Below, one piece after another: positions 11,019 to 21,686 of a DNA stretch of 64,000 bases. The position numbers and the translations under genes were made by a program. The stretch is from Stieleria maiorica (GTDB taxonomy: Bacteria; Planctomycetota; Planctomycetia; Pirellulales; Pirellulaceae), in NCBI RefSeq assembly GCF_008035925.1, contig NZ_CP036264.1, positions 7,783,641 to 7,847,640 on the forward strand. The letters are read 5' to 3'. Under the pieces are notes generated by a model. It had not been told where the DNA came from. It did no database searches and saw nothing but the letters and a program-made list of their open reading frames with translations. Position 1 is the first letter of the stretch; each line of letters starts with the position of its first letter.

Positions 11019-11223
11019 AGGCATCCCCAAACCACTTGCCGCCCCCACGCCGGCAAACTCAATGGTCCAGCGATCCGTAGGCGTCGCTTCCGCATCCCAG
11101 TCTTTGTTTCCCTGAAGTACGCGTTTCCCTGACGTCCGGTCGCGCGGAAAACAACTGCTCAGATCCAACCGAACGATGCCCCTTCGCCAGAACGCCTGGT
11201 CAAATCGGGTGGTTTCCATTATC

Positions 11224-11272
11224 GGCAGTCCGACTGCTGATAAGATGAGTAAATCACGGCAGTCGGACTGCC
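11224..11272. repeat. 14-base perfect inverted repeat at the left flank of the cassette array
   Basis: Arms ggcagtccgactgc (11224-11237) and gcagtcggactgcc (11259-11272) are exact reverse complements with a 21-base loop, and each arm is itself partly palindromic. It lies just before the first GTTCCCC box at 11284. It could be a dispersed repeat or a remnant of the array's entry site. Confidence 0.7.
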
Positions 11273-11333
11273 AAGAATTCATCGTTCCCCGGCTGATAGT
11301 CGTAGAGCTCACATGTTCAAACACGCATAGCTA

Positions 11334-12363: not shown

Positions 12364-12453
12364 GGGGAACCATCGGATGCACCGAAGTGCCGGTGGATAC
12401 TTTGCACGAATGGAAACTCAACTCCCGGCACTCGGTGATCCGTGCCGTTCACG
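12364..12453 (+). other. attC site 2
   Basis: Boxes GGGGAAC and GTTCACG; stems CGGAT/ATCCG, CACCGA/TCGGTG and GTGCCGG/CCGGCAC, with an unpaired G and A. Confidence 0.88.
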
Positions 12454-12910
12454 CTTCCAACCGACGCGTGACACGCCAGTCACTACGATTCGTGTCATTC
12501 GAGTGATTCGTGGACAAATCTCTTCTCCGCTATGCGCATTCTGGTCCAACGCCTGACATCCCGACTGCGATTGGTGCGCTCGAATTGCGCTCATCGGATT
12601 TCATCAGACCTCTATTTCTTGGGATTCGCTCCTGACGTCATCGTTCGAGCGGTGCGCGGTCGACTCGGCAGACGATGACAAACCGACGCCTGACGATTGC
12701 AACGCTGACAACCGACACCCGAAGTGCTGACCGCAGATTGGGACGCTCGATTTCCCTTGGCCATTCCGATCGAGTACATTGGCCATCAGCGACGATGGCT
12801 CAAGCTGTCGTCGTGGTCGATCCGCGTGAACCAAGTGGTGCACCGCAGTCGGCGAGTCGAGTTTGTTTTTGAGTTCCGGTCCATCGCGCCGACGCGGTGA
12901 CCACAGGCCG
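12448..12910 (+). repeat. cassette 3: diverged relative of the repeated 431-bp cassette
   Basis: This cassette aligns in its second half with the three identical cassettes at 14953, 16540 and 18192, with scattered substitutions. Two short overlapping plus-strand frames stay partly conserved: one around 12628-12730 (SWDSLLTSSFERCAVDSADDDKPTPDD) and one at 12724-12900 from a GTG (LTADWDARFPLAIPIEYIGHQRRW). Comparing 37 codons of the first frame with the identical copies, I counted differences at codon positions 1/2/3 as 3/6/9, a mild sign of coding constraint. Whether anything is translated is unresolved. Confidence 0.6.
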
Positions 12911-13287: not shown

Positions 13288-13379
13288 GAATAACAATGCC
13301 GTGCACACGAAGCCGCCGATCACGCGGTTTGCCAATGGAGAGCGTGTCTCCGGCGGCTCGGTGACGGCTGCCGTTCACA
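13288..13379 (+). other. attC site 4
   Basis: Boxes GAATAAC and GTTCACA; stems CCGT/ACGG, an imperfect CACACGA/TCGGTG and GCCGCCG/CGGCGGC. It starts directly after the cassette 4 gene. Confidence 0.85.
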
Positions 13380-13907
13380 CTGCTAACCGACGCCCGGCAG
13401 CGACGGCCCACCTTTTCTCTGTGTCCCTTCGTGACGTCTATGGTTTCACATTCATCCACGGTTTGATTGATGCACCCGAAGTGGGAGATGTGGCAGACGA
13501 ATGATTGGCAGACGAATGGGAGAGCGCCAATAGCAGGCGGCAGACCTAGCAGGATTCATTCGTCTGCCACCGATTCGTTTGCCACATGGCTCGACAAGGA
13601 AGGGCTCAAACTTCCATGCCCCGAGGATTTCAACGGATCACTCGGCGTTCCAATAGGGTTCTCAGGAGCGGCTACTCAATAGCCGATTGAGTACGATCCG
13701 AACCAATCCCACGCCCGAGATACTGACCGCAGATTGGGATACCGAATTTCCCGTGGCGATTTTAATCGAGTACATTGGCAAACAGCGGCGATGGTTCGAA
13801 CTGTCGTCGTGACCGGACGCGTGAACCATCCGTTGCACACGCAGGCACGGAGTCCGCGTCAATCGAAAACACAATGTCGTTCGCCGTGCCGCGGTGAACG
13901 GCGGTCG
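13374..13907 (+). repeat. cassette 5: part of the repeated-cassette family, no clear gene
   Basis: The last third (about 13715-13812) keeps the conserved segment of the repeated cassettes: the frame reads LTADWDTEFPVAILIEYIGKQRRWFELSS and stops. The middle carries an inverted repeat (13490-13570). A 71-residue frame at 13467-13682 runs through that repeat and is not convincing as a gene. Confidence 0.55.
13490..13570. repeat. inverted repeat with an additional direct copy
   Basis: gtggcagacgaatg (13490-13503) is exactly inverted at 13557-13570. A further direct copy, ttggcagacgaatg, lies at 13506-13519. Probably a dispersed short element inside cassette 5. Confidence 0.75.
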
Positions 13908-14865: not shown

Positions 14866-14958
14866 GCAGAACCATGAATTGCACGGGAGAACGGGAGTCG
14901 TGTTCAATGGTCTGCTTGCATGCCTTCCGACCGTTCCCCGTGAATTCCGTCGTTCGCG
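14866..14958 (+). other. attC site 7
   Basis: Boxes GCAGAAC and GTTCGCG; stems GAATT/AATTC, CACGGG/CCCGTG and GAACGG/CCGTTC, with an unpaired G and A. Confidence 0.88.
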
Positions 14959-15383
14959 GCAGTAGACTTGGCTGCGATGGTCCGGCGCCTGTCGTCCATG
15001 CTGCTGACGGGTGCGCTCGAATTTGGCCCACTTGATGTCGTCGAACCTCCGTTTCCTGGGATTCGCTCTTGATGTCACGGTATGACGGGTGCGCGGTCGA
15101 CTCGGCTGACGAAGACAAACCGACGCCTGACGACTTCAATGCTGAAAACCGACGCCTGAAATGCTGACTGGAGATTGGGAGGTTCGAATTTCCCGTGGCG
15201 ATTCGAATCGAGTACATTGGCAAACCGCGACGATGTTTCAAGCCGGCGTGCCGACCGGCGCCACGAACCGGGCGATGCACCCCAGCACACTCATTGTTGC
15301 GAGACGCAAACTTTTACCCGATTCGGTCATCACGCTCACGCCATCTCAATCGTAAAGGTCCGTGTGCGAGGTGATCGCTGATG
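14953..15383 (+). repeat. repeated 431-bp cassette, copy 1
   Basis: The sequence from ttcgcggc to gatcgctgatg recurs without a visible difference at 16540-16970, and with one apparent base change near its start (ggcggtag for ggcagtag) at 18192-18622. It includes its own long attC. Plus-strand frames of 64-68 residues and antisense frames of 71 or more residues exist but look arbitrary: relative to cassettes 3 and 5 the IEYIG frame is shifted by one base just before gaatttccc. It may be a gene-less cassette, a decayed gene, or one carrying a promoter or RNA. Confidence 0.85.
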
Positions 15384-15389
15384 TTCCAC
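15262..15389 (+). other. attC site 8 (long type)
   Basis: Boxes CACGAAC and GTTCCAC; stems GCGAT/ATCGC, CACC/GGTG and GCACAC/GTGTGC around a loop of about 70 bases. It is clearly longer than the 88-94-base sites of the gene-bearing cassettes. Confidence 0.8.
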
Positions 15390-15431
15390 AATCGAACTTC
15401 GACACACACGAGTCATGGATTCTCGTTAGCA

Positions 15432-15737
15432 ATGTCACCCGACGACATCATTCATCATATGGCGTGCGACATTTCACAATGCATCAGCGACATTGTTCCC
15501 GCATGGCCTTTCCCGGGCGAACCTGCGGACGCGTATACGGATGCCGTTTGCGCTGTTTTTGGTGATGCTCCCACTGAGCAATCGGTGCTCGAAGCATGGC
15601 GAAAGGGAAAACCTGCGGAAACACTGCGTGACGAGCTAAACGATGGAGAGGAAACGGATGTGGTTACTTTGAAGGCCGCAGAGATGCTCGTTCGGATCAT
15701 GATCGTGAACAATTTCGGACCTGAGGCGGTTGCTTGA
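15432..15737 (+). CDS. cassette 9: hypothetical protein, 101 aa
   Basis: A small acidic soluble protein beginning MSPDDIIHHMACDISQCISD and ending NNFGPEAVA. The frame is open back to 15381, but that would start translation inside attC 8, so the internal ATG is preferred. No family is recognised. It follows repeated cassette copy 1 directly. Confidence 0.6.
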   Translation: MSPDDIIHHMACDISQCISDIVPAWPFPGEPADAYTDAVCAVFGDAPTEQSVLEAWRKGKPAETLRDELNDGEETDVVTLKAAEMLVRIMIVNNFGPEAVA

Positions 15738-15755
15738 GGCCTGGGAATGACAGGT

Positions 15756-15843
15756 GTGGAACAATGCGATGCAACGGAGCGGCGGCATCGTTTTTGCAAA
15801 TGGATGATCTTGGGTCGCCGCCCGCTGATCGCCAACGTTCCCC
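15756..15843 (+). other. attC site 9
   Basis: Boxes GTGGAAC and GTTCCCC; stems GCGAT/ATCGC, CAACGG/CCGCTG (one mismatch) and GCGGCG/CGCCGC, with an unpaired G and A. Confidence 0.87.
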
Positions 15844-15849
15844 GAATGA

Positions 15850-16467
15850 ATGATGGACGCTGAATGGTTTGCATCGCGTCTCACGTCGACTGACCGTCGA
15901 TCGCAATGGTGGGCTGCGGTTCAATTGATGAACGCTGGACCGGAAGCGAGCGTCCACCTTTGTCGACTTCTCGAAATCTGCGATGAGATCGATATCGATG
16001 GCGAATTGCCTGAACTTGAACACTGGATCACGTTCTACGCCGCACGCGCATCTGGACGGATTGTCCATTCGATAGGCTACGACGGTGACGACCGCCTCCA
16101 CAAACGAGTATTCGATTGGATTAAACGGCTTGCCTTGCACCGAAACGTAGAGCGTGCAATCGGGGGGATTTGGGGACTCGCTGACCTAGGCACGCCACCT
16201 GCCGCAACCATCGGTCTTCTTGTTGACCTGACGTTGAACGACACACGACGCGACCCGACAGGCGAGCATTCCGCTCGTTCAGTTGCTTTTCGCATGCTTG
16301 CACGAATCGACCGCGCGGCGGCTGTGCATTATGCTGACACACACGCGGGGCGTGAGTTTATTGCGGACGTGTACCGTTGGTCTGAGGCCAATCCAGAACG
16401 TGCCGTGGGACCAAACGGCATACTGACCGAAGCCGGTTGGTTGATCCCGGAGATCGGGGAACAATGA
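15850..16467 (+). CDS. cassette 10: hypothetical protein, 205 aa
   Basis: A helical soluble protein that starts only 7 bases after attC 9, with tandem ATG codons at 15850 and 15853. The text (WWAAVQLMNAGPEASVHLCRLLEICDEID...AIGGIWGLADLGTPPAATIGLLVDLTLND) has the look of HEAT/ARM-like helical repeats, but no family is certain. Its last codons and stop lie inside the left box of attC 10: the stop TGA follows GGGGAACAA directly. Cassette excision therefore takes the complete gene. Confidence 0.72.
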   Translation: MMDAEWFASRLTSTDRRSQWWAAVQLMNAGPEASVHLCRLLEICDEIDIDGELPELEHWITFYAARASGRIVHSIGYDGDDRLHKRVFDWIKRLALHRNVERAIGGIWGLADLGTPPAATIGLLVDLTLNDTRRDPTGEHSARSVAFRMLARIDRAAAVHYADTHAGREFIADVYRWSEANPERAVGPNGILTEAGWLIPEIGEQ

Positions 16468-16545
16468 CATGCACCGAAGCACGCGAGTCGAGATTTTTGA
16501 AGTGGCTGGTCCACCGCGCGTGCTCGGTGATGTCCGGCGTTCGCG
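16456..16545 (+). other. attC site 10
   Basis: Boxes GGGGAAC and GTTCGCG; stems GACAT/ATGTC, CACCGA/TCGGTG and GCACGCG/CGCGTGC, with an unpaired G and A. The left box overlaps the end of the preceding gene. Confidence 0.89.
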
Positions 16546-16970
16546 GCAGTAGACTTGGCTGCGATGGTCCGGCGCCTGTCGTCCATGCTGCTGACGGGTG
16601 CGCTCGAATTTGGCCCACTTGATGTCGTCGAACCTCCGTTTCCTGGGATTCGCTCTTGATGTCACGGTATGACGGGTGCGCGGTCGACTCGGCTGACGAA
16701 GACAAACCGACGCCTGACGACTTCAATGCTGAAAACCGACGCCTGAAATGCTGACTGGAGATTGGGAGGTTCGAATTTCCCGTGGCGATTCGAATCGAGT
16801 ACATTGGCAAACCGCGACGATGTTTCAAGCCGGCGTGCCGACCGGCGCCACGAACCGGGCGATGCACCCCAGCACACTCATTGTTGCGAGACGCAAACTT
16901 TTACCCGATTCGGTCATCACGCTCACGCCATCTCAATCGTAAAGGTCCGTGTGCGAGGTGATCGCTGATG
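16540..16970 (+). repeat. repeated 431-bp cassette, copy 2
   Basis: No difference from copy 1 was seen by eye. It stands between the cassette 10 gene and the receiver-domain gene. Its boundaries fall exactly on the GTT boxes, so it duplicated as a cassette and not by unequal exchange at random points. Confidence 0.88.
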
Positions 16971-16976
16971 TTCCCC
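16849..16976 (+). other. attC site 11 (long type)
   Basis: Same sequence as attC 8 apart from the distal bases of the right box, here GTTCCCC, which belong to the next cassette as expected for insertion between G and TT. Confidence 0.82.
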
Positions 16977-17000
16977 GACTGAAGAGACTGCCCGCTCATC

Positions 17001-17429
17001 GTGAACTTTCTCGTGATGCTAGAAGACGACCTGGATCGCATTTCGCGGTTTCGTGCTGTTTTGGCTCTGTATCATCCCGAGGCGACGCTGGGCGTATATC
17101 GATCGGCGCCTGATTTCATCGCCGGGTATTCCTCTCTCGATCGCATTCCTGACCTCGTCTGCCTCGACCACGATCTGTTTGCCGACTCGCCTGATGACCC
17201 GGATCCGGGTGATGGCCGTGATGTCGCTGCGTTCTTGGTGACACGCCAACCAATCGCTCCTGCACTCATACACTCGACCAACGCCGTAGCAGCAGACTCA
17301 ATGCTTTATTCGATGCGTGACGCCAGCTGGAACGTCGAGCGAATCGCACCACTTGGCGAGGACTGGATTGAGTCGTACTGGTTCCCGACCGCTCGCGAAA
17401 TGGTGGCTGCCCACGAAGGCCAACGCTAG
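17001..17429 (+). CDS. cassette 12: cyclic-phosphate-processing receiver-like domain protein
   Basis: A 142-residue protein starting at a GTG. It has a receiver-like fold: MLEDDLDRI at the first strand, the phospho-acceptor-like segment LVCLDHDLF with acidic residues, then DGRDVAAFLVTRQ and PALIHSTNAVAADSM. This pattern resembles the receiver-like family associated with cyclic-phosphate nucleotide processing in conflict systems (family knowledge; not tested here). No partner kinase or effector gene lies in the same cassette. It is a single-domain protein with no output domain. Confidence 0.68.
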   Translation: MNFLVMLEDDLDRISRFRAVLALYHPEATLGVYRSAPDFIAGYSSLDRIPDLVCLDHDLFADSPDDPDPGDGRDVAAFLVTRQPIAPALIHSTNAVAADSMLYSMRDASWNVERIAPLGEDWIESYWFPTAREMVAAHEGQR

Positions 17430-17435
17430 AATTGC

Positions 17436-17526
17436 GGGGAACCAAGCGGTGAACGGGAGCCGCCGATGACGCGGGTTTCGAAATAATAGATTGTTGGCGG
17501 CGGCCCCGTTACCGCCGTCGTTCGCC
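17436..17526 (+). other. attC site 12
   Basis: Boxes GGGGAAC and GTTCGCC; stems GCGGT/ACCGC, AACGGG/CCCGTT and GCCGCCG/CGGCGGC, with an unpaired G and A. Confidence 0.9.
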
Positions 17527-17604
17527 GACAGGGGGTAGCATTGATTGCCTCCCCACCAACCGCACGCTAAAATGTCAACCGACACTTAACGGCGAGCGAA
17601 AAAG

Positions 17605-17814
17605 ATGCAAAGTGAACCAGAAACCGTAAAACAAGCCGCTTCGTCAATTCTTCAGGGTCTTCCTGACGACGTGACGTGGGAGCGTGTGCAGTATCACCTT
17701 TTTGTCCGTCAACAAGTCGAACTTGGGTTGGCAGACGCTGAGGCTGGGCGGCTTCTTGAAACGTCAGATGTGCGCAAACGGCTGGATGTGGCTAAAGCGA
17801 ACGCATCCAAATGA
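17605..17814 (+). CDS. cassette 13: antitoxin of a RelE/ParE-type pair
   Basis: A 69-residue protein (MQSEPETVKQAASSILQGLP...RRLL-type C-terminus SDVRKRLDVAKANASK). Its length, helical/acidic character and 4-base ATGA overlap with the next gene fit the antitoxin of a type II toxin-antitoxin operon. The region VELGLADAEAGRLLETSDVRKR resembles antitoxins paired with ParE-like toxins. It would bind and neutralise the product of 17811-18143 and probably autoregulate the operon. Confidence 0.8.
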   Translation: MQSEPETVKQAASSILQGLPDDVTWERVQYHLFVRQQVELGLADAEAGRLLETSDVRKRLDVAKANASK

Positions 17815-18143
17815 AGCTCCGCTGGACCGAAAGGGCGACGGATCAATTGATTGGTGTCCACGACTACATCGCTCAATCCTCTCCAGAGTTCGCTTCTGCG
17901 GTTGCCGAACGAATTTTCGCTCGCCCCGAGCCACAACTCATTGATTTCCCGTACTCCGGATCCGTTGTTCCCGAATACGGACGCAATGACATTCGCGAAG
18001 TGTTCTCCGACTCATATCGGATCATACATCAAGTACTGCCTGGCGAGGTTCGTATACTTGCTGTGATTCATGGATCGATGACCCTTCCAATGTCTCCTCC
18101 ATCAGACGGCGAACCAGACGATGCACGTGAGCCGCCGAGCTGA
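17811..18143 (+). CDS. cassette 13: RelE/ParE-family toxin
   Basis: A 110-residue protein with the RelE/ParE fold signature: MKLRWTERATDQLIGVHDYI at the N-terminus, DFPYSGSVVPEYGRNDIREVF, then SYRIIHQVLPGEVRILAVIHGSM. ParE-like toxins act on gyrase and RelE-like toxins on ribosome-bound mRNA; sequence alone does not decide which. The last dozen residues (DGEPDDAREPPS) are translated from the left arm of attC 13, so they are an appendage derived from the recombination site. Toxin-antitoxin cassettes are known to stabilise large integron arrays. Confidence 0.87.
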   Translation: MKLRWTERATDQLIGVHDYIAQSSPEFASAVAERIFARPEPQLIDFPYSGSVVPEYGRNDIREVFSDSYRIIHQVLPGEVRILAVIHGSMTLPMSPPSDGEPDDAREPPS

Positions 18144-18197
18144 GTTTGTTGAAGTGGTGAGTCGTTTGCGGCGGCCACGTGATCGCGGTCGTTCGCG
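18108..18197 (+). other. attC site 13
   Basis: Boxes GGCGAAC and GTTCGCG; stems CGAT/ATCG, CACGTG/CACGTG and GCCGCCG/CGGCGGC. The left half overlaps the end of the toxin gene. Confidence 0.88.
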
Positions 18198-18622
18198 GCG
18201 GTAGACTTGGCTGCGATGGTCCGGCGCCTGTCGTCCATGCTGCTGACGGGTGCGCTCGAATTTGGCCCACTTGATGTCGTCGAACCTCCGTTTCCTGGGA
18301 TTCGCTCTTGATGTCACGGTATGACGGGTGCGCGGTCGACTCGGCTGACGAAGACAAACCGACGCCTGACGACTTCAATGCTGAAAACCGACGCCTGAAA
18401 TGCTGACTGGAGATTGGGAGGTTCGAATTTCCCGTGGCGATTCGAATCGAGTACATTGGCAAACCGCGACGATGTTTCAAGCCGGCGTGCCGACCGGCGC
18501 CACGAACCGGGCGATGCACCCCAGCACACTCATTGTTGCGAGACGCAAACTTTTACCCGATTCGGTCATCACGCTCACGCCATCTCAATCGTAAAGGTCC
18601 GTGTGCGAGGTGATCGCTGATG
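18192..18622 (+). repeat. repeated 431-bp cassette, copy 3
   Basis: Matches copies 1 and 2 over its whole length apart from one base near the left end (ggcggtag for ggcagtag). It follows the toxin-antitoxin cassette and precedes the two-helix membrane protein. Confidence 0.87.
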
Positions 18623-18717: not shown

Positions 18718-18915
18718 ATGAATAATCCATTCCTACCGGCTCTAGTCATTTTTGGGCCATTTTTCTTGCTTTTGTTGTGCTTTACCCTTACTCGAGCAAG
18801 GGACAAAGAAAACCGGGTGACTCCGAACTCCGTCAGTTTGGCAATTGGTGCGTCCCTACTTATTGGCGTTTTGGGCGGTGCCGTCGTTATTACGATATGG
18901 TCACTAAACGCATAA
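18718..18915 (+). CDS. cassette 15: small two-helix membrane protein, 65 aa
   Basis: Two hydrophobic helices (LPALVIFGPFFLLLLCFTL and SLAIGASLLIGVLGGAVVITIW) flank a charged loop (TRARDKENRVTP). The size and topology are those of a small membrane protein of unknown role. The cassette is AT-richer than its neighbours, suggesting a different origin. Confidence 0.65.
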   Translation: MNNPFLPALVIFGPFFLLLLCFTLTRARDKENRVTPNSVSLAIGASLLIGVLGGAVVITIWSLNA

Positions 18916-19730: not shown

Positions 19731-19822
19731 CGATAACCATGACATCCACCGAAGGACGCGAGTCGAACGGTTTGGCAATGGTTGAGTCTTTCGCGCGTCC
19801 TCGGTGATGTCTGCCGTTCGCG
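19731..19822 (+). other. attC site 16 (last complete site)
   Basis: Boxes CGATAAC and GTTCGCG; stems GACAT/ATGTC, CACCGA/TCGGTG and GGACGCG/CGCGTCC, with an unpaired C and A. Confidence 0.88.
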
Positions 19823-20103
19823 CTCCTACCCGACGCGTGGCGGCAACGCCGGGTCAACTTTCGTGTTTTTCGCGTCGTTCGTGGTTGCTCTCTTTTCCGC
19901 TGTTCCCATCGCGATCCTAGGCCTGACATCCCGGTTTGATTGATGCGCTCGAAGAGCCCCCATCGGGATTTTCAGACCTCTGTTTCCTGGGATTCGCATT
20001 TGGTTTCGTCGTTTGACTGGTGCGCTGACAAACCGACGACTGATATGACGACTTTAAAGTCATTGCTGAATCCAACGGACCAGCTGCCCGGGCGATGTGT
20101 CTG
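19817..20103 (+). repeat. cassette 17: repeated-cassette relative truncated by the IS
   Basis: The segment around 19925-20070 (ctgtttcctgggattcgc, then gacaaaccgacga) matches the repeated cassettes and cassette 3, and the same SWDS reading frame is kept. No attC follows before the IS begins, so the cassette has lost its 3' end. Confidence 0.6.
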
Positions 20104-20137
20104 AGGCCCGGAGGGCCGGCAGAGTGTCTGCCGGTGG

Positions 20138-20162
20138 CGTCAGCCCTCGTTGTTATACACAA
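20138..20162 (+). repeat. left inner inverted repeat of the IS
   Basis: The sequence starting cgtcagccctcgttgttat matches the reverse complement of 21688-21712. Confidence 0.85.
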
Positions 20163-20252
20163 ATTTTTGATGATGTATTGATTCGCGAAATCGCTCAAAC
20201 TGTTGCTTACAGGGAGTTCAGGTGCACGACAGGTAGCAACGGAGTGTTTGCG

Positions 20253-21686
20253 ATGGTGAGCCAATGGGTGATTGACGAATTAGAAACGGTGGATCTTGGC
20301 GACAAGAGACGAAATGAACGACTTGCCGAAGTGCTCTCCGCCATGGCTGGTTTGCCGAGCAAGAGCATTCCTGCTGCAGTCGGCGCAGGACACAACGAAA
20401 CAACGGCAGCCTACCGACTTTTTGATAACGATGCGATCTGCTTTGAGGACATTTTAGCGCCCCATATAGATGCCTGCTATAAGCGTCTTGCTGAGCAAGA
20501 AGTTGTCATCTTGGCTCACGATACGACGGAACTGGATTTGACGAAACCTAACACGCAAGTAGAAGGGGCCGGTCCGCTAGATGGCAGTTCACGCTACGGC
20601 GAGTTGCTTCACCCGCTGATGGCGTTCACTCCCACCGGCACGCCCTTAGGAACCGTTGCAGCAGAACTTTGGACTCGCGAGGAAGGTCCGTCAAAAGCCG
20701 ATGATCGAAAGAAAGTGCCGATTGAAGAGAAGGAGTCTCTGCGATGGCTTGAAAACCACCGCGAAGCACAGTTGATCGCTAGCGAGCACCCCGAAACGCA
20801 AGTTGTCTGCGTGGCTGACAGCGAAGCGGACATTTTTGAAGTCATCGAGTGTAATTCCGATTCTCCAAAGAACTTTTGGTGGATTATTCGCAGTTGCTAT
20901 GACCGTTCGATCGTTGATCAGCACGGTCGGCCATCAGGAAATCTGCATGAAAAACTCGCCGCGAGCAAAGTACGCTACACCAAAGCGATAACGATTCGTT
21001 CGCACCAACCCAAGTTAGCCTGTGACAAACGAGCACGCAATCAACCGCGAGAGGCACGCCAATGCGAACTCGAGGTGCGTGCAACGACGCTGACACTGAA
21101 GACCCCCTATCGGCCCGATCGACACCTACGGCCCACGAAAGTCAACGCGATTTGGGCTCACGAGATCGATCCGCCTGAAGGGGATACGCCTATCAGTTGG
21201 CTGTTGCTGACCAATATGCCGATTTCGAACAAGGAAGAGATTGAGCTGGTGTTGTCTTACTACTGCATTCGCTGGTTGATCGAAGTATTCTTCCGAACTC
21301 TCAAATCAGGCACTCGCATCGAAGCAAAGCGGTTTGAAAAGATCGAACGATTCGAGCGTTGTCTCGCTGTTTCGATGATCTTGGCGTGGCGAACGTTCTA
21401 CAGCGTGCGGATCGGTCGCGAATGTCCAGACGTCAGCTGTGAAGCAGTATTCGTAGCCGACGAATGGCAGCCGGTATACAAGATCGTCACCGGGGAAGAT
21501 CCGCCAAAGAAACCACCGACGTTGAAGGAGATCGTCCGCATGATCGCTCGGCTTGGCGGCTACATCGACCGACCACGACATGACGAACCTGGCACCGATA
21601 CGGTCATGCGCGGCATGGAACGACTCTACGACATCAGTAGTTGTTGGCGAAGCTTTGGTCCAAATGCAACCAGATCAGGGGAATGA
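20253..21686 (+). CDS. IS4/Tn5-like DDE transposase
   Basis: From the ATG at 20253 (MVSQWVIDELETVDLGDKRR) the product has 477 residues. The DDE residues are likely in VILAHDTTELD, VVCVADSEADIFE and the IS4 YREK signature YYCIRWLIEVFFRTLKSG. The N-terminal DLGDKRRNERL and the AGHNETTAAYRLFDND segment are typical of Tn5/IS50-type transposases. The frame is open upstream to 20097, but that part runs through the terminal repeat and lacks transposase similarity. The gene looks intact. Confidence 0.93.
   Translation: MVSQWVIDELETVDLGDKRRNERLAEVLSAMAGLPSKSIPAAVGAGHNETTAAYRLFDNDAICFEDILAPHIDACYKRLAEQEVVILAHDTTELDLTKPNTQVEGAGPLDGSSRYGELLHPLMAFTPTGTPLGTVAAELWTREEGPSKADDRKKVPIEEKESLRWLENHREAQLIASEHPETQVVCVADSEADIFEVIECNSDSPKNFWWIIRSCYDRSIVDQHGRPSGNLHEKLAASKVRYTKAITIRSHQPKLACDKRARNQPREARQCELEVRATTLTLKTPYRPDRHLRPTKVNAIWAHEIDPPEGDTPISWLLLTNMPISNKEEIELVLSYYCIRWLIEVFFRTLKSGTRIEAKRFEKIERFERCLAVSMILAWRTFYSVRIGRECPDVSCEAVFVADEWQPVYKIVTGEDPPKKPPTLKEIVRMIARLGGYIDRPRHDEPGTDTVMRGMERLYDISSCWRSFGPNATRSGE

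What the first reader, a model, noticed from the sequence alone, without database searches (positions are those of the whole stretch)
14953..18622. One 431-bp cassette without a clear gene occurs three times, almost identical, between different gene cassettes
Copies at 14953-15383, 16540-16970 and 18192-18622 begin and end exactly at recombination points and differ, as far as I can see, by a single base. Such identity implies recent cassette duplication. Each copy sits upstream of a different gene cassette (15432, 17001, 18718), so it could supply a promoter, a small RNA or an extra attC substrate. Cassettes 3, 5 and 17 are diverged relatives, so the element has a long history in this array.
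Basis: partly seen in the sequence, partly recalled or inferred. Interest (0 to 1): 0.85.

Follow-up and report, generated by a model that had tools for sequence, protein, structure and literature searches.

The report
Gene-less integron cassette, probably mobile promoter
A short piece of DNA without a clear gene has been copied many times among the gene collections (integron arrays) of a bacterium, and one of its best-conserved parts looks like a switch that could turn on whatever gene lands next to it, although this has not been measured.

Summary
Copies 1 and 2 are identical, copy 3 differs by one base; all start and end at integron crossover points (G|TT) and carry an attC. The genome (one 9.89-Mb contig, Stieleria-type planctomycete) has at least 15 full-length copies in three arrays, 15 of 15 with G|TT ends. 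They belong to a family of 35 among 115 delimited cassettes; near-identical copies are commoner in it (19 of 35) than elsewhere (4 of 80). 11 of 14 genomes of the genus, this one included, have matches. I found no conserved reading frame or RNA structure. A conserved block, TTnCCC-nn-GGCGATTC-nn-ATCGAG-TAnAnT, ends 45-46 nt upstream of attC on the same strand in 34 of 36 genomic matches; its hexamer keeps T1, A2, T6 in 49 of 49 non-redundant sequences from five genomes while positions 3 and 5 vary. Best reading: a mobile promoter cassette, like those shown in Vibrio and Treponema. Promoter activity is untested, no sigma-70 consensus is present, a second body block is equally conserved, and even spacing seen here did not replicate in four other genomes.

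The parts
14953..15383 (+). Gene-less cassette, copy 1 (431 nt, type I)
16540..16970 (+). Gene-less cassette, copy 2, identical to copy 1
18192..18622 (+). Gene-less cassette, copy 3, one base different (base 9)
15264..15388 (+). attC of copy 1 (last 5 nt belong to the next cassette); long 125-nt type
   Evidence: attC covariance model R1, 33.2 bits
16851..16975 (+). attC of copy 2
   Evidence: R1, 35.5 bits
18503..18628 (+). attC of copy 3 (hit as reported; one base longer than in copies 1 and 2)
   Evidence: R1, 26.0 bits
15190..15218 (+). Conserved promoter-like block in copy 1; hexamer TACATT at 15213-15218 (inferred -10), TTTCCC at 15189-15194 (inferred weak -35, 18-nt spacer)
16777..16805 (+). 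Conserved promoter-like block in copy 2; hexamer at 16800-16805
18429..18457 (+). Conserved promoter-like block in copy 3; hexamer at 18452-18457
14868..14957 (+). attC of the cassette before copy 1
   Evidence: R1, 75.2 bits
16458..16544 (+). attC of the cassette before copy 2
   Evidence: R1, 85.5 bits
18110..18196 (+). attC of the cassette before copy 3
   Evidence: R1, 90.6 bits
15432..15737 (+). ORF of the cassette downstream of copy 1 (101 aa, no Pfam match at E 0.01)
17001..17429 (+). ORF of the cassette downstream of copy 2 (142 aa, cREC_REC receiver-like domain, 36.5 bits)
18718..18915 (+). ORF of the cassette downstream of copy 3 (65 aa, below-cut-off TM7S3_TM198 match); the cassette recurs at 99.6% identity in the 6.78-Mb array
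12448..12910 (+). Diverged cassette of the same family (463-nt subfamily)
13374..13907 (+). Diverged cassette of the same family (534 nt)
19914..20086 (+). Family-profile hit in the cassette that starts at 19817; sequence from about 20100 on matches a Tn5-like insertion sequence at about 99%
11203..11290 (+). Array-head element, read as attI (ends ATTCATCG|TT); 5 copies found in the genome; no integrase match in this window

Best explanation
The 431-bp element is a genuine mobile integron cassette without a recognisable gene. An integron integrase excises and re-inserts it at G|TT through its attC, which has spread it among arrays of one chromosome (structure shown; the enzymology is inferred from the integron family). 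Its most likely function is to act as a promoter cassette: RNA polymerase binds the conserved block that ends 45 nt upstream of attC, starts roughly 7 nt after TACATT in the sense direction, transcribes through attC and expresses the next one or more cassettes, most of whose ORFs start too near the cassette edge to have much room for a promoter of their own (inferred). Cassettes that supply transcription to arrays without their own integrase and Pc would be retained and copied (inferred).
For: Cassette: 15 of 15 full-length copies bounded by G|TT; covarying attC structure; copies 99.5-100% identical to copy 1 in three arrays with different neighbours. Selective copying: at >=99% identity 19 of 35 family members against 4 of 80 other cassettes have a copy (Fisher p = 7.4e-9). 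Promoter: the block contains the best-conserved 20-nt windows among 29 non-redundant bodies; in 49 non-redundant sequences from five genomes the hexamer keeps T1, A2, T6 in 49 and A4 in 48, while positions 3 and 5 are 57% and 55%, although the genomes differ in it (TACATT, TAGACT, TAAACT); the body consensus reads TAnAnT only there, and of 252 columns only two 6-column windows hold at least 4 near-invariant columns, this being one; a variable gap of about discriminator length and then AGCG follow. The block pattern has 36 matches in the genome, 0 for the reversed control, 34 of them ending 45-46 nt before an attC on the same strand. 270 of 270 profile hits in 18 stretches from five genomes lie in attC orientation. 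56 of 74 non-family cassettes with an ORF >=90 aa have it start within 50 nt of the cassette edge. Precedent: most of 29 gene-less Vibrio cassettes had sense promoter activity (PMC11014356: abstract, Results parts 1-2 of 3, Discussion); also Treponema (PMC6557892, abstract).
Against: No sigma-70 consensus promoter is found in copy 1; TTTCCC matches TTGACA at only 3 of 6. The block is not uniquely conserved: in the 49-sequence set the best 24-nt window overlapping it (from column 229) ties with one from column 153 (both 0.855), and columns 125-170 reach 0.856 against 0.910 in the 29-sequence set. Even spacing of family cassettes was significant here at one distance only (two positions, p = 0.0023; one p = 0.053, three p = 0.071; post hoc), weaker on re-annotation (p = 0.017) and absent in four other genomes (p = 0.47, 0.29, 0.49, 0.20). 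The fixed distance to attC could be common descent. The hexamer argument was made after seeing the alignment. The published work says that such promoters could not be predicted in silico. No expression data. Family membership is by similarity, so the copy-number contrast is partly built in, less so at >=99%.
Confidence: 0.52

Rival explanations
1. A selfish, functionless cassette that multiplied because its attC is a good integrase substrate; the conserved body is shared ancestry and gene conversion.
For: attCs of the 431-bp copies mostly fold well on the bottom strand (log10 pfold -0.07 to -0.29 in 11 of 14 scored; the others -0.43, -0.68, -1.04). attCs of types I and II differ by one base in about 125 while whole cassettes differ by about 38, which looks like conversion. 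Family cassettes host an insertion sequence and palindromes. Spacing test not replicated.
Against: attC folding is not significantly better in the family than in other cassettes (p = 0.078; 21 of 115 left out; family as then defined, 38). Blocks of the body stay about 85% conserved across species, one with a -10-like pattern of fixed and free positions.
Confidence: 0.29
2. The conserved block is a binding site (partial dyad CGATTCnnATCG) for a regulator or nucleoid protein that silences or insulates cassettes, or that modulates recombination at the nearby attC.
For: Dyad, and variable dinucleotides about 10 nt apart (-18/-17 and -8/-7) in the block; fixed 45-46 nt distance to attC.
Against: In this genome 80 of 115 delimited cassettes have no family body and still recombined into arrays; the TAnAnT pattern fits transcription better.
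Confidence: 0.11
3. The cassette encodes a small or antisense RNA.
For: A promoter-like block would also make an RNA; some ORF-less cassettes act by antisense RNA (stated in the abstract of PMC6557892).
Against: Folding z-score +0.49, no pairs predicted in the alignment, no Rfam match at gathering score in the window and none in the copies in the sensitive scan, no terminator-like site in copy 1.
Confidence: 0.06
4. It encodes a short protein that I missed.
For: ORFs of 68 (sense) and 71 (antisense) codons exist in each window copy.
Against: No frame is free of stops in more than 6 of 29 non-redundant bodies (profile columns, gaps removed) and divergence shows no clear 3-base period; the sense ORF runs into attC; relatives differ in length by 1, 3 and 49 nt.
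Confidence: 0.02

Closest known systems
Gene-less ('promoter') cassettes of Vibrio sedentary chromosomal integrons (Blanco et al. 2024, PMC11014356)
   Same: Integron cassettes without an annotated gene or sizeable ORF, similar size (491-666 nt there, 431 here), lying among gene cassettes; most of those tested had sense promoter activity.
   Different: Here one homologous family makes up 35 of 115 cassettes, with near-identical copies in several arrays of one chromosome, and keeps conserved blocks across a genus. The sections that I read (abstract, Results parts 1-2, Discussion) describe no shared core. Activity is not measured here.
ORF-less gene cassettes of Treponema from the oral metagenome (Tansirichaiya et al. 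2019, PMC6557892)
   Same: ORF-less cassettes with promoter activity.
   Different: Different phylum; only the abstract was seen, sequences not compared.
CALIN (attC cluster lacking an integrase)
   Same: The window array has attCs and no integrase match in the window; the only intact IntI found is 1 Mb away at 6.778 Mb.
   Different: The array begins with an attI-like element shared with four other places, one beside a broken intI.

Membership tests
Integron gene cassette | Ends at the G|TT crossover point of flanking attC sites | tested here: met
   15 of 15 full-length copies in this genome; 10 of 10 distinct copies in the held stretches of other genomes
Integron gene cassette | Carries an attC with R and L boxes, paired arms and an extrahelical base | tested here: met
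   Covariation in neighbouring attCs; the window copies' own attCs score 26.0-35.5 bits
Integron gene cassette | Recombined by an integron integrase | not testable with these tools
   One IntI over the cut-off in the genome (6777864-6778841, 400 bits, cut-off 265); activity not tested
Gene-less cassette | No annotated gene and no ORF above 210 bp (70 aa), the definition in PMC11014356 | tested here: inconclusive
   Window copies: longest sense ORF 68 codons, longest antisense ORF 71 codons with GTG start, one codon over if antisense ORFs count. In the wider family 21 of 35 have a longest sense ORF of at most 73 codons, 14 of 35 have 81-166
[quoted passage not shown]
   No expression data; only sequence evidence
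Promoter cassette | Consensus sigma-70 promoter | tested here: not met
   0 found in copy 1; not required by the published cases, where prediction failed
MITE or insertion sequence | Terminal inverted repeats | tested here: not met
   Only internal 10- and 11-nt inverted pairs in copy 1; ends are G|TT
Structured non-coding RNA | Conserved base pairing | tested here: not met

The most novel reading that the evidence does not exclude
A genus-wide family of interchangeable promoter cassettes: the bacterium keeps many near-identical, integrase-mobile promoters and deals them through several chromosomal arrays, most lacking an intact integrase and hence its Pc promoter, so that array expression is set by where these standard parts land rather than by distance to one promoter.
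Probability: 0.32. Interest if true: 0.75.

Novelty: new variant of a known kind. Interest (0 to 1): 0.51.

Why it matters
How distant cassettes in large integron arrays, and cassettes in arrays without an integrase, are expressed is an open question. A single homologous family of gene-less cassettes with a conserved promoter-like block at fixed distance from attC, copied more than other cassettes, makes it testable in a new phylum. Integrons and attCs of Planctomycetes are already known (passages in PMC2426708 and PMC8352920). On gene-less cassettes in this group I found nothing in print by these searches, listings only: 'integron' + 'Stieleria', 0 papers; 'integron' + 'Rhodopirellula' + 'cassette', 3, not opened; 'integron' + 'Pirellul', 14, none on the subject by title.

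Tried and rejected
Small RNA: folding, alifold and Rfam negative (one search gave two sub-threshold miRNA matches at 11208-11287, in the array head). Hidden protein: disfavoured. Deletion derivative of a transposable element: the longest relatives carry a 529-575-aa Tn5-like transposase (Pfam on one of them; 'IS4 family' is recalled), but five aligned copies show a near-identical insertion sequence with its own ends in diverse surroundings, so it is a passenger (the output was cut in the middle). Plasmid spread: no match in 72,556 plasmid records. Spread outside the genus: in 60 genomes of the family, this one and one congener included, two others had one short match each, 34 and 39 nt. A 27-base pattern from an upstream body block, not the promoter-like one, hit two contigs in genome contigs, Stieleria sedimenti and Rhodopirellula sp. 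JC639. Better attC: not significant. Even spacing: see above.

Corrections made on re-checking: my first family of 38 (19 of 38 against 4 of 77) held three cassettes joined only through similar attCs; by body profile the family is 35 of 115 and the contrast 19 of 35 against 4 of 80. I also first called the promoter-like block the most conserved; in the larger set it ties with another, and I lowered the main confidence from 0.55 to 0.52 and the novel case from 0.33 to 0.32 for that, raising two rivals slightly.

Limits of counts: for the attC list I dropped five of 128 hits and two of 16 (opposite-strand, partial or weak), leaving 137; cassettes are intervals between neighbouring attCs, so first cassettes and single attCs are not counted. 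The whole-genome attC search scored 150 of 5,798 candidates. The full-family alignment was too gappy and was replaced by a profile alignment. One search stopped on an index error after printing what I cite. The simple attC finder used for other genomes found 26 of 31, 15 of 17, 15 of 16, 19 of 22 and 15 of 15 covariance-model sites in this genome's arrays; counts for other genomes are approximate, and their stretches were chosen by matches to this sequence or to its attC. Planctomycete start sites: nothing usable (listing only).
Full report
What is there. The three copies are exact as reported: 14953-15383 and 16540-16970 are identical, 18192-18622 differs at base 9 only. Each starts with TT after a G and ends with G before TT. 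attCs in front of copies covary in their arms (13 sequences, 94.3% standard pairs, 14 of 23 pairs with changes on both sides, 0 of 500 shuffles reach the covariation score). A covariance model built from them finds 115 attCs in the genome at E <= 0.001 (150 of 5,798 first-look candidates scored) and recognises the attC of each 431-bp copy, which is longer (125-126 nt) than the usual 85-91 (94 of 115 cassettes).

The genome. The window lies in a single 9.89-Mb contig. The 431-bp sequence has 54 full or partial matches (40 of 64 candidates scored); 15 are full length, 7 in an array at 2.97 Mb, 5 at 8.74 Mb, 3 in the window, and 15 of 15 have G|TT ends, one of them read two bases beyond the end of its alignment. 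Eight form type I (99.5-100% to copy 1), four type II (98-100% to each other, 89-91% to copy 1), three are further variants (81, 89 and 91%). Of 14 genomes of the genus, this one included, 14 have attC hits and 11 have matches to the 431-bp sequence. Contigs with an upstream body block belong to Stieleria sedimenti and Rhodopirellula sp. JC639, hence my label Stieleria-type; no tool names the window's own organism.

The arrays. An 88-nt element ending in ATTCATCG|TT was found five times in the genome: at the heads of the window's array (11203-11290), of the two others that hold 431-bp copies, of the 4.46-Mb array, and beside a single attC at 4.68 Mb. At 8.74 Mb it lies beside an integron integrase gene that is broken into more than one frame. 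I read it as attI. The only integron integrase over the family cut-off (400 bits against 265) is at 6.778 Mb, beside an array with a different head. In that array I saw no full-length 431-bp copy, but it shares one cassette each with the 8.74-Mb array (99.9%) and the window's (99.6%), so cassettes do move between arrays.

The family. I delimited 115 cassettes in the fetched arrays. By a profile of the body without attC, 35 of 115 form one family, 28 of them in the three arrays that hold 431-bp copies. Fifteen are the 431-bp subfamily; its longest sense ORF is at most 73 codons except in the 480-nt variant (101). In the whole family 14 of 35 have a longer sense ORF, 81-166 codons, which I did not test one by one. 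Several members contain a Tn5-like insertion sequence or palindromic repeats. At >=99% identity over >=95% of length, 19 of 35 members have a copy, against 4 of 80 others (Fisher p = 7.4e-9); since membership itself rests on similarity, part of this contrast is built in.

Function. Against RNA and protein. The body profile had 151 hits in the stretches then held, some of which overlap. Among 29 non-redundant bodies (18 from other genomes) the best 20-nt windows lie at GGCGATTCnnATCGAGTACATTGG. With arrays from four more genomes, 175 of 270 hits cover this block well enough, 49 of them non-redundant at 85%: hexamers TACATT 26, TAGACT 17, TAAACT 2, TACACT 2, TAAATT 1, TAAGAT 1. Of all 175, three break the rule or hold N (TACATG, TGCATT, NNNACT). 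Positions 1, 2 and 6 are 100%, position 4 98%, positions 3 and 5 57% and 55%. In this larger set the best 24-nt window overlapping the block ties with one at columns 153-176, so something else in the body is conserved too. From my knowledge of bacterial promoters (recalled), the T, A and T at these positions are the least variable of the -10 element. An 18-nt spacer upstream stands TTnCCC, a poor -35, and the consensus scan of copy 1 finds no promoter. In this genome the block pattern (up to 3 mismatches) has 36 matches and 0 for the reversed control; 34 end 45 or 46 nt before an attC on the same strand, one 100 nt, and one (8753981) has no called attC downstream in its array. In 18 stretches from five genomes, each turned to the strand with more attCs, 270 of 270 profile hits lie in attC orientation, and 154 of 168 hexamers end 40-49 nt before the next called attC.

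Taken together I favour a sense-directed promoter that fires through attC into the next cassette. Shown: cassette nature, copying, conservation, orientation, distance. Inferred: promoter activity, start site, benefit. In the three arrays, 29 of 33 other cassettes have a family member within two positions upstream (p = 0.0023; within one p = 0.053, within three p = 0.071), but this was chosen after looking and four other genomes gave p = 0.47, 0.29, 0.49 and 0.20 with a simpler annotation, so I give it no weight.

Literature. Blanco et al. 2024 (PMC11014356; abstract, Results parts 1-2 of 3 and Discussion) show sense promoter activity in most gene-less Vibrio cassettes and state that in silico prediction failed; this is both the closest precedent and a warning about my sequence argument. 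Tansirichaiya et al. 2019 (PMC6557892, abstract) show promoter activity for Treponema ORF-less cassettes. A Vibrio DAT722 array had 25 ORF-less of 116 positions (PMC2945992, one passage).

Noticed in passing
window 17605-18143: A cassette with a small ORF (69 aa, no Pfam match) overlapping a ParE-family toxin ORF (PF05016, 45.9 bits): a likely toxin-antitoxin cassette directly before copy 3.
   Followed up: partly
window about 20100-21500 and beyond; also L022, L023, L024, L028, L029, L030, L040: A Tn5-like insertion sequence, about 99% identical at eight places counting the window, several of them inside or beside family cassettes.
   Followed up: partly
L019:16493-17536 (end of the 8.74-Mb array): A group II intron reverse transcriptase/maturase ORF (PF00078, PF08388) on the strand opposite to the cassettes.
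   Followed up: partly
L026:5552-7297: The intact integron integrase lies in a 581-aa frame, with about 150 residues before and 100 after the stretch that matches the integrase family.
   Followed up: no
window 11203-11290; 8743086, 4459124, 2966514, 4678608 in the genome: Five attI-like elements at the heads of four arrays and one single attC; an integrase match was found beside only one, a broken one.
   Followed up: partly
cassettes of 534-560 nt in the window, L019, L021, L025, L027, L029: Long palindromic repeats (CAGACGAATG type and CGCAAAG type) in the middle of family cassettes.
   Followed up: no
L091 and L092 (G069): 16 of 16 non-redundant family sequences of this genome have TAGACT where most of the window genome's have TACATT: a lineage-wide difference in the same hexamer.
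   Followed up: partly
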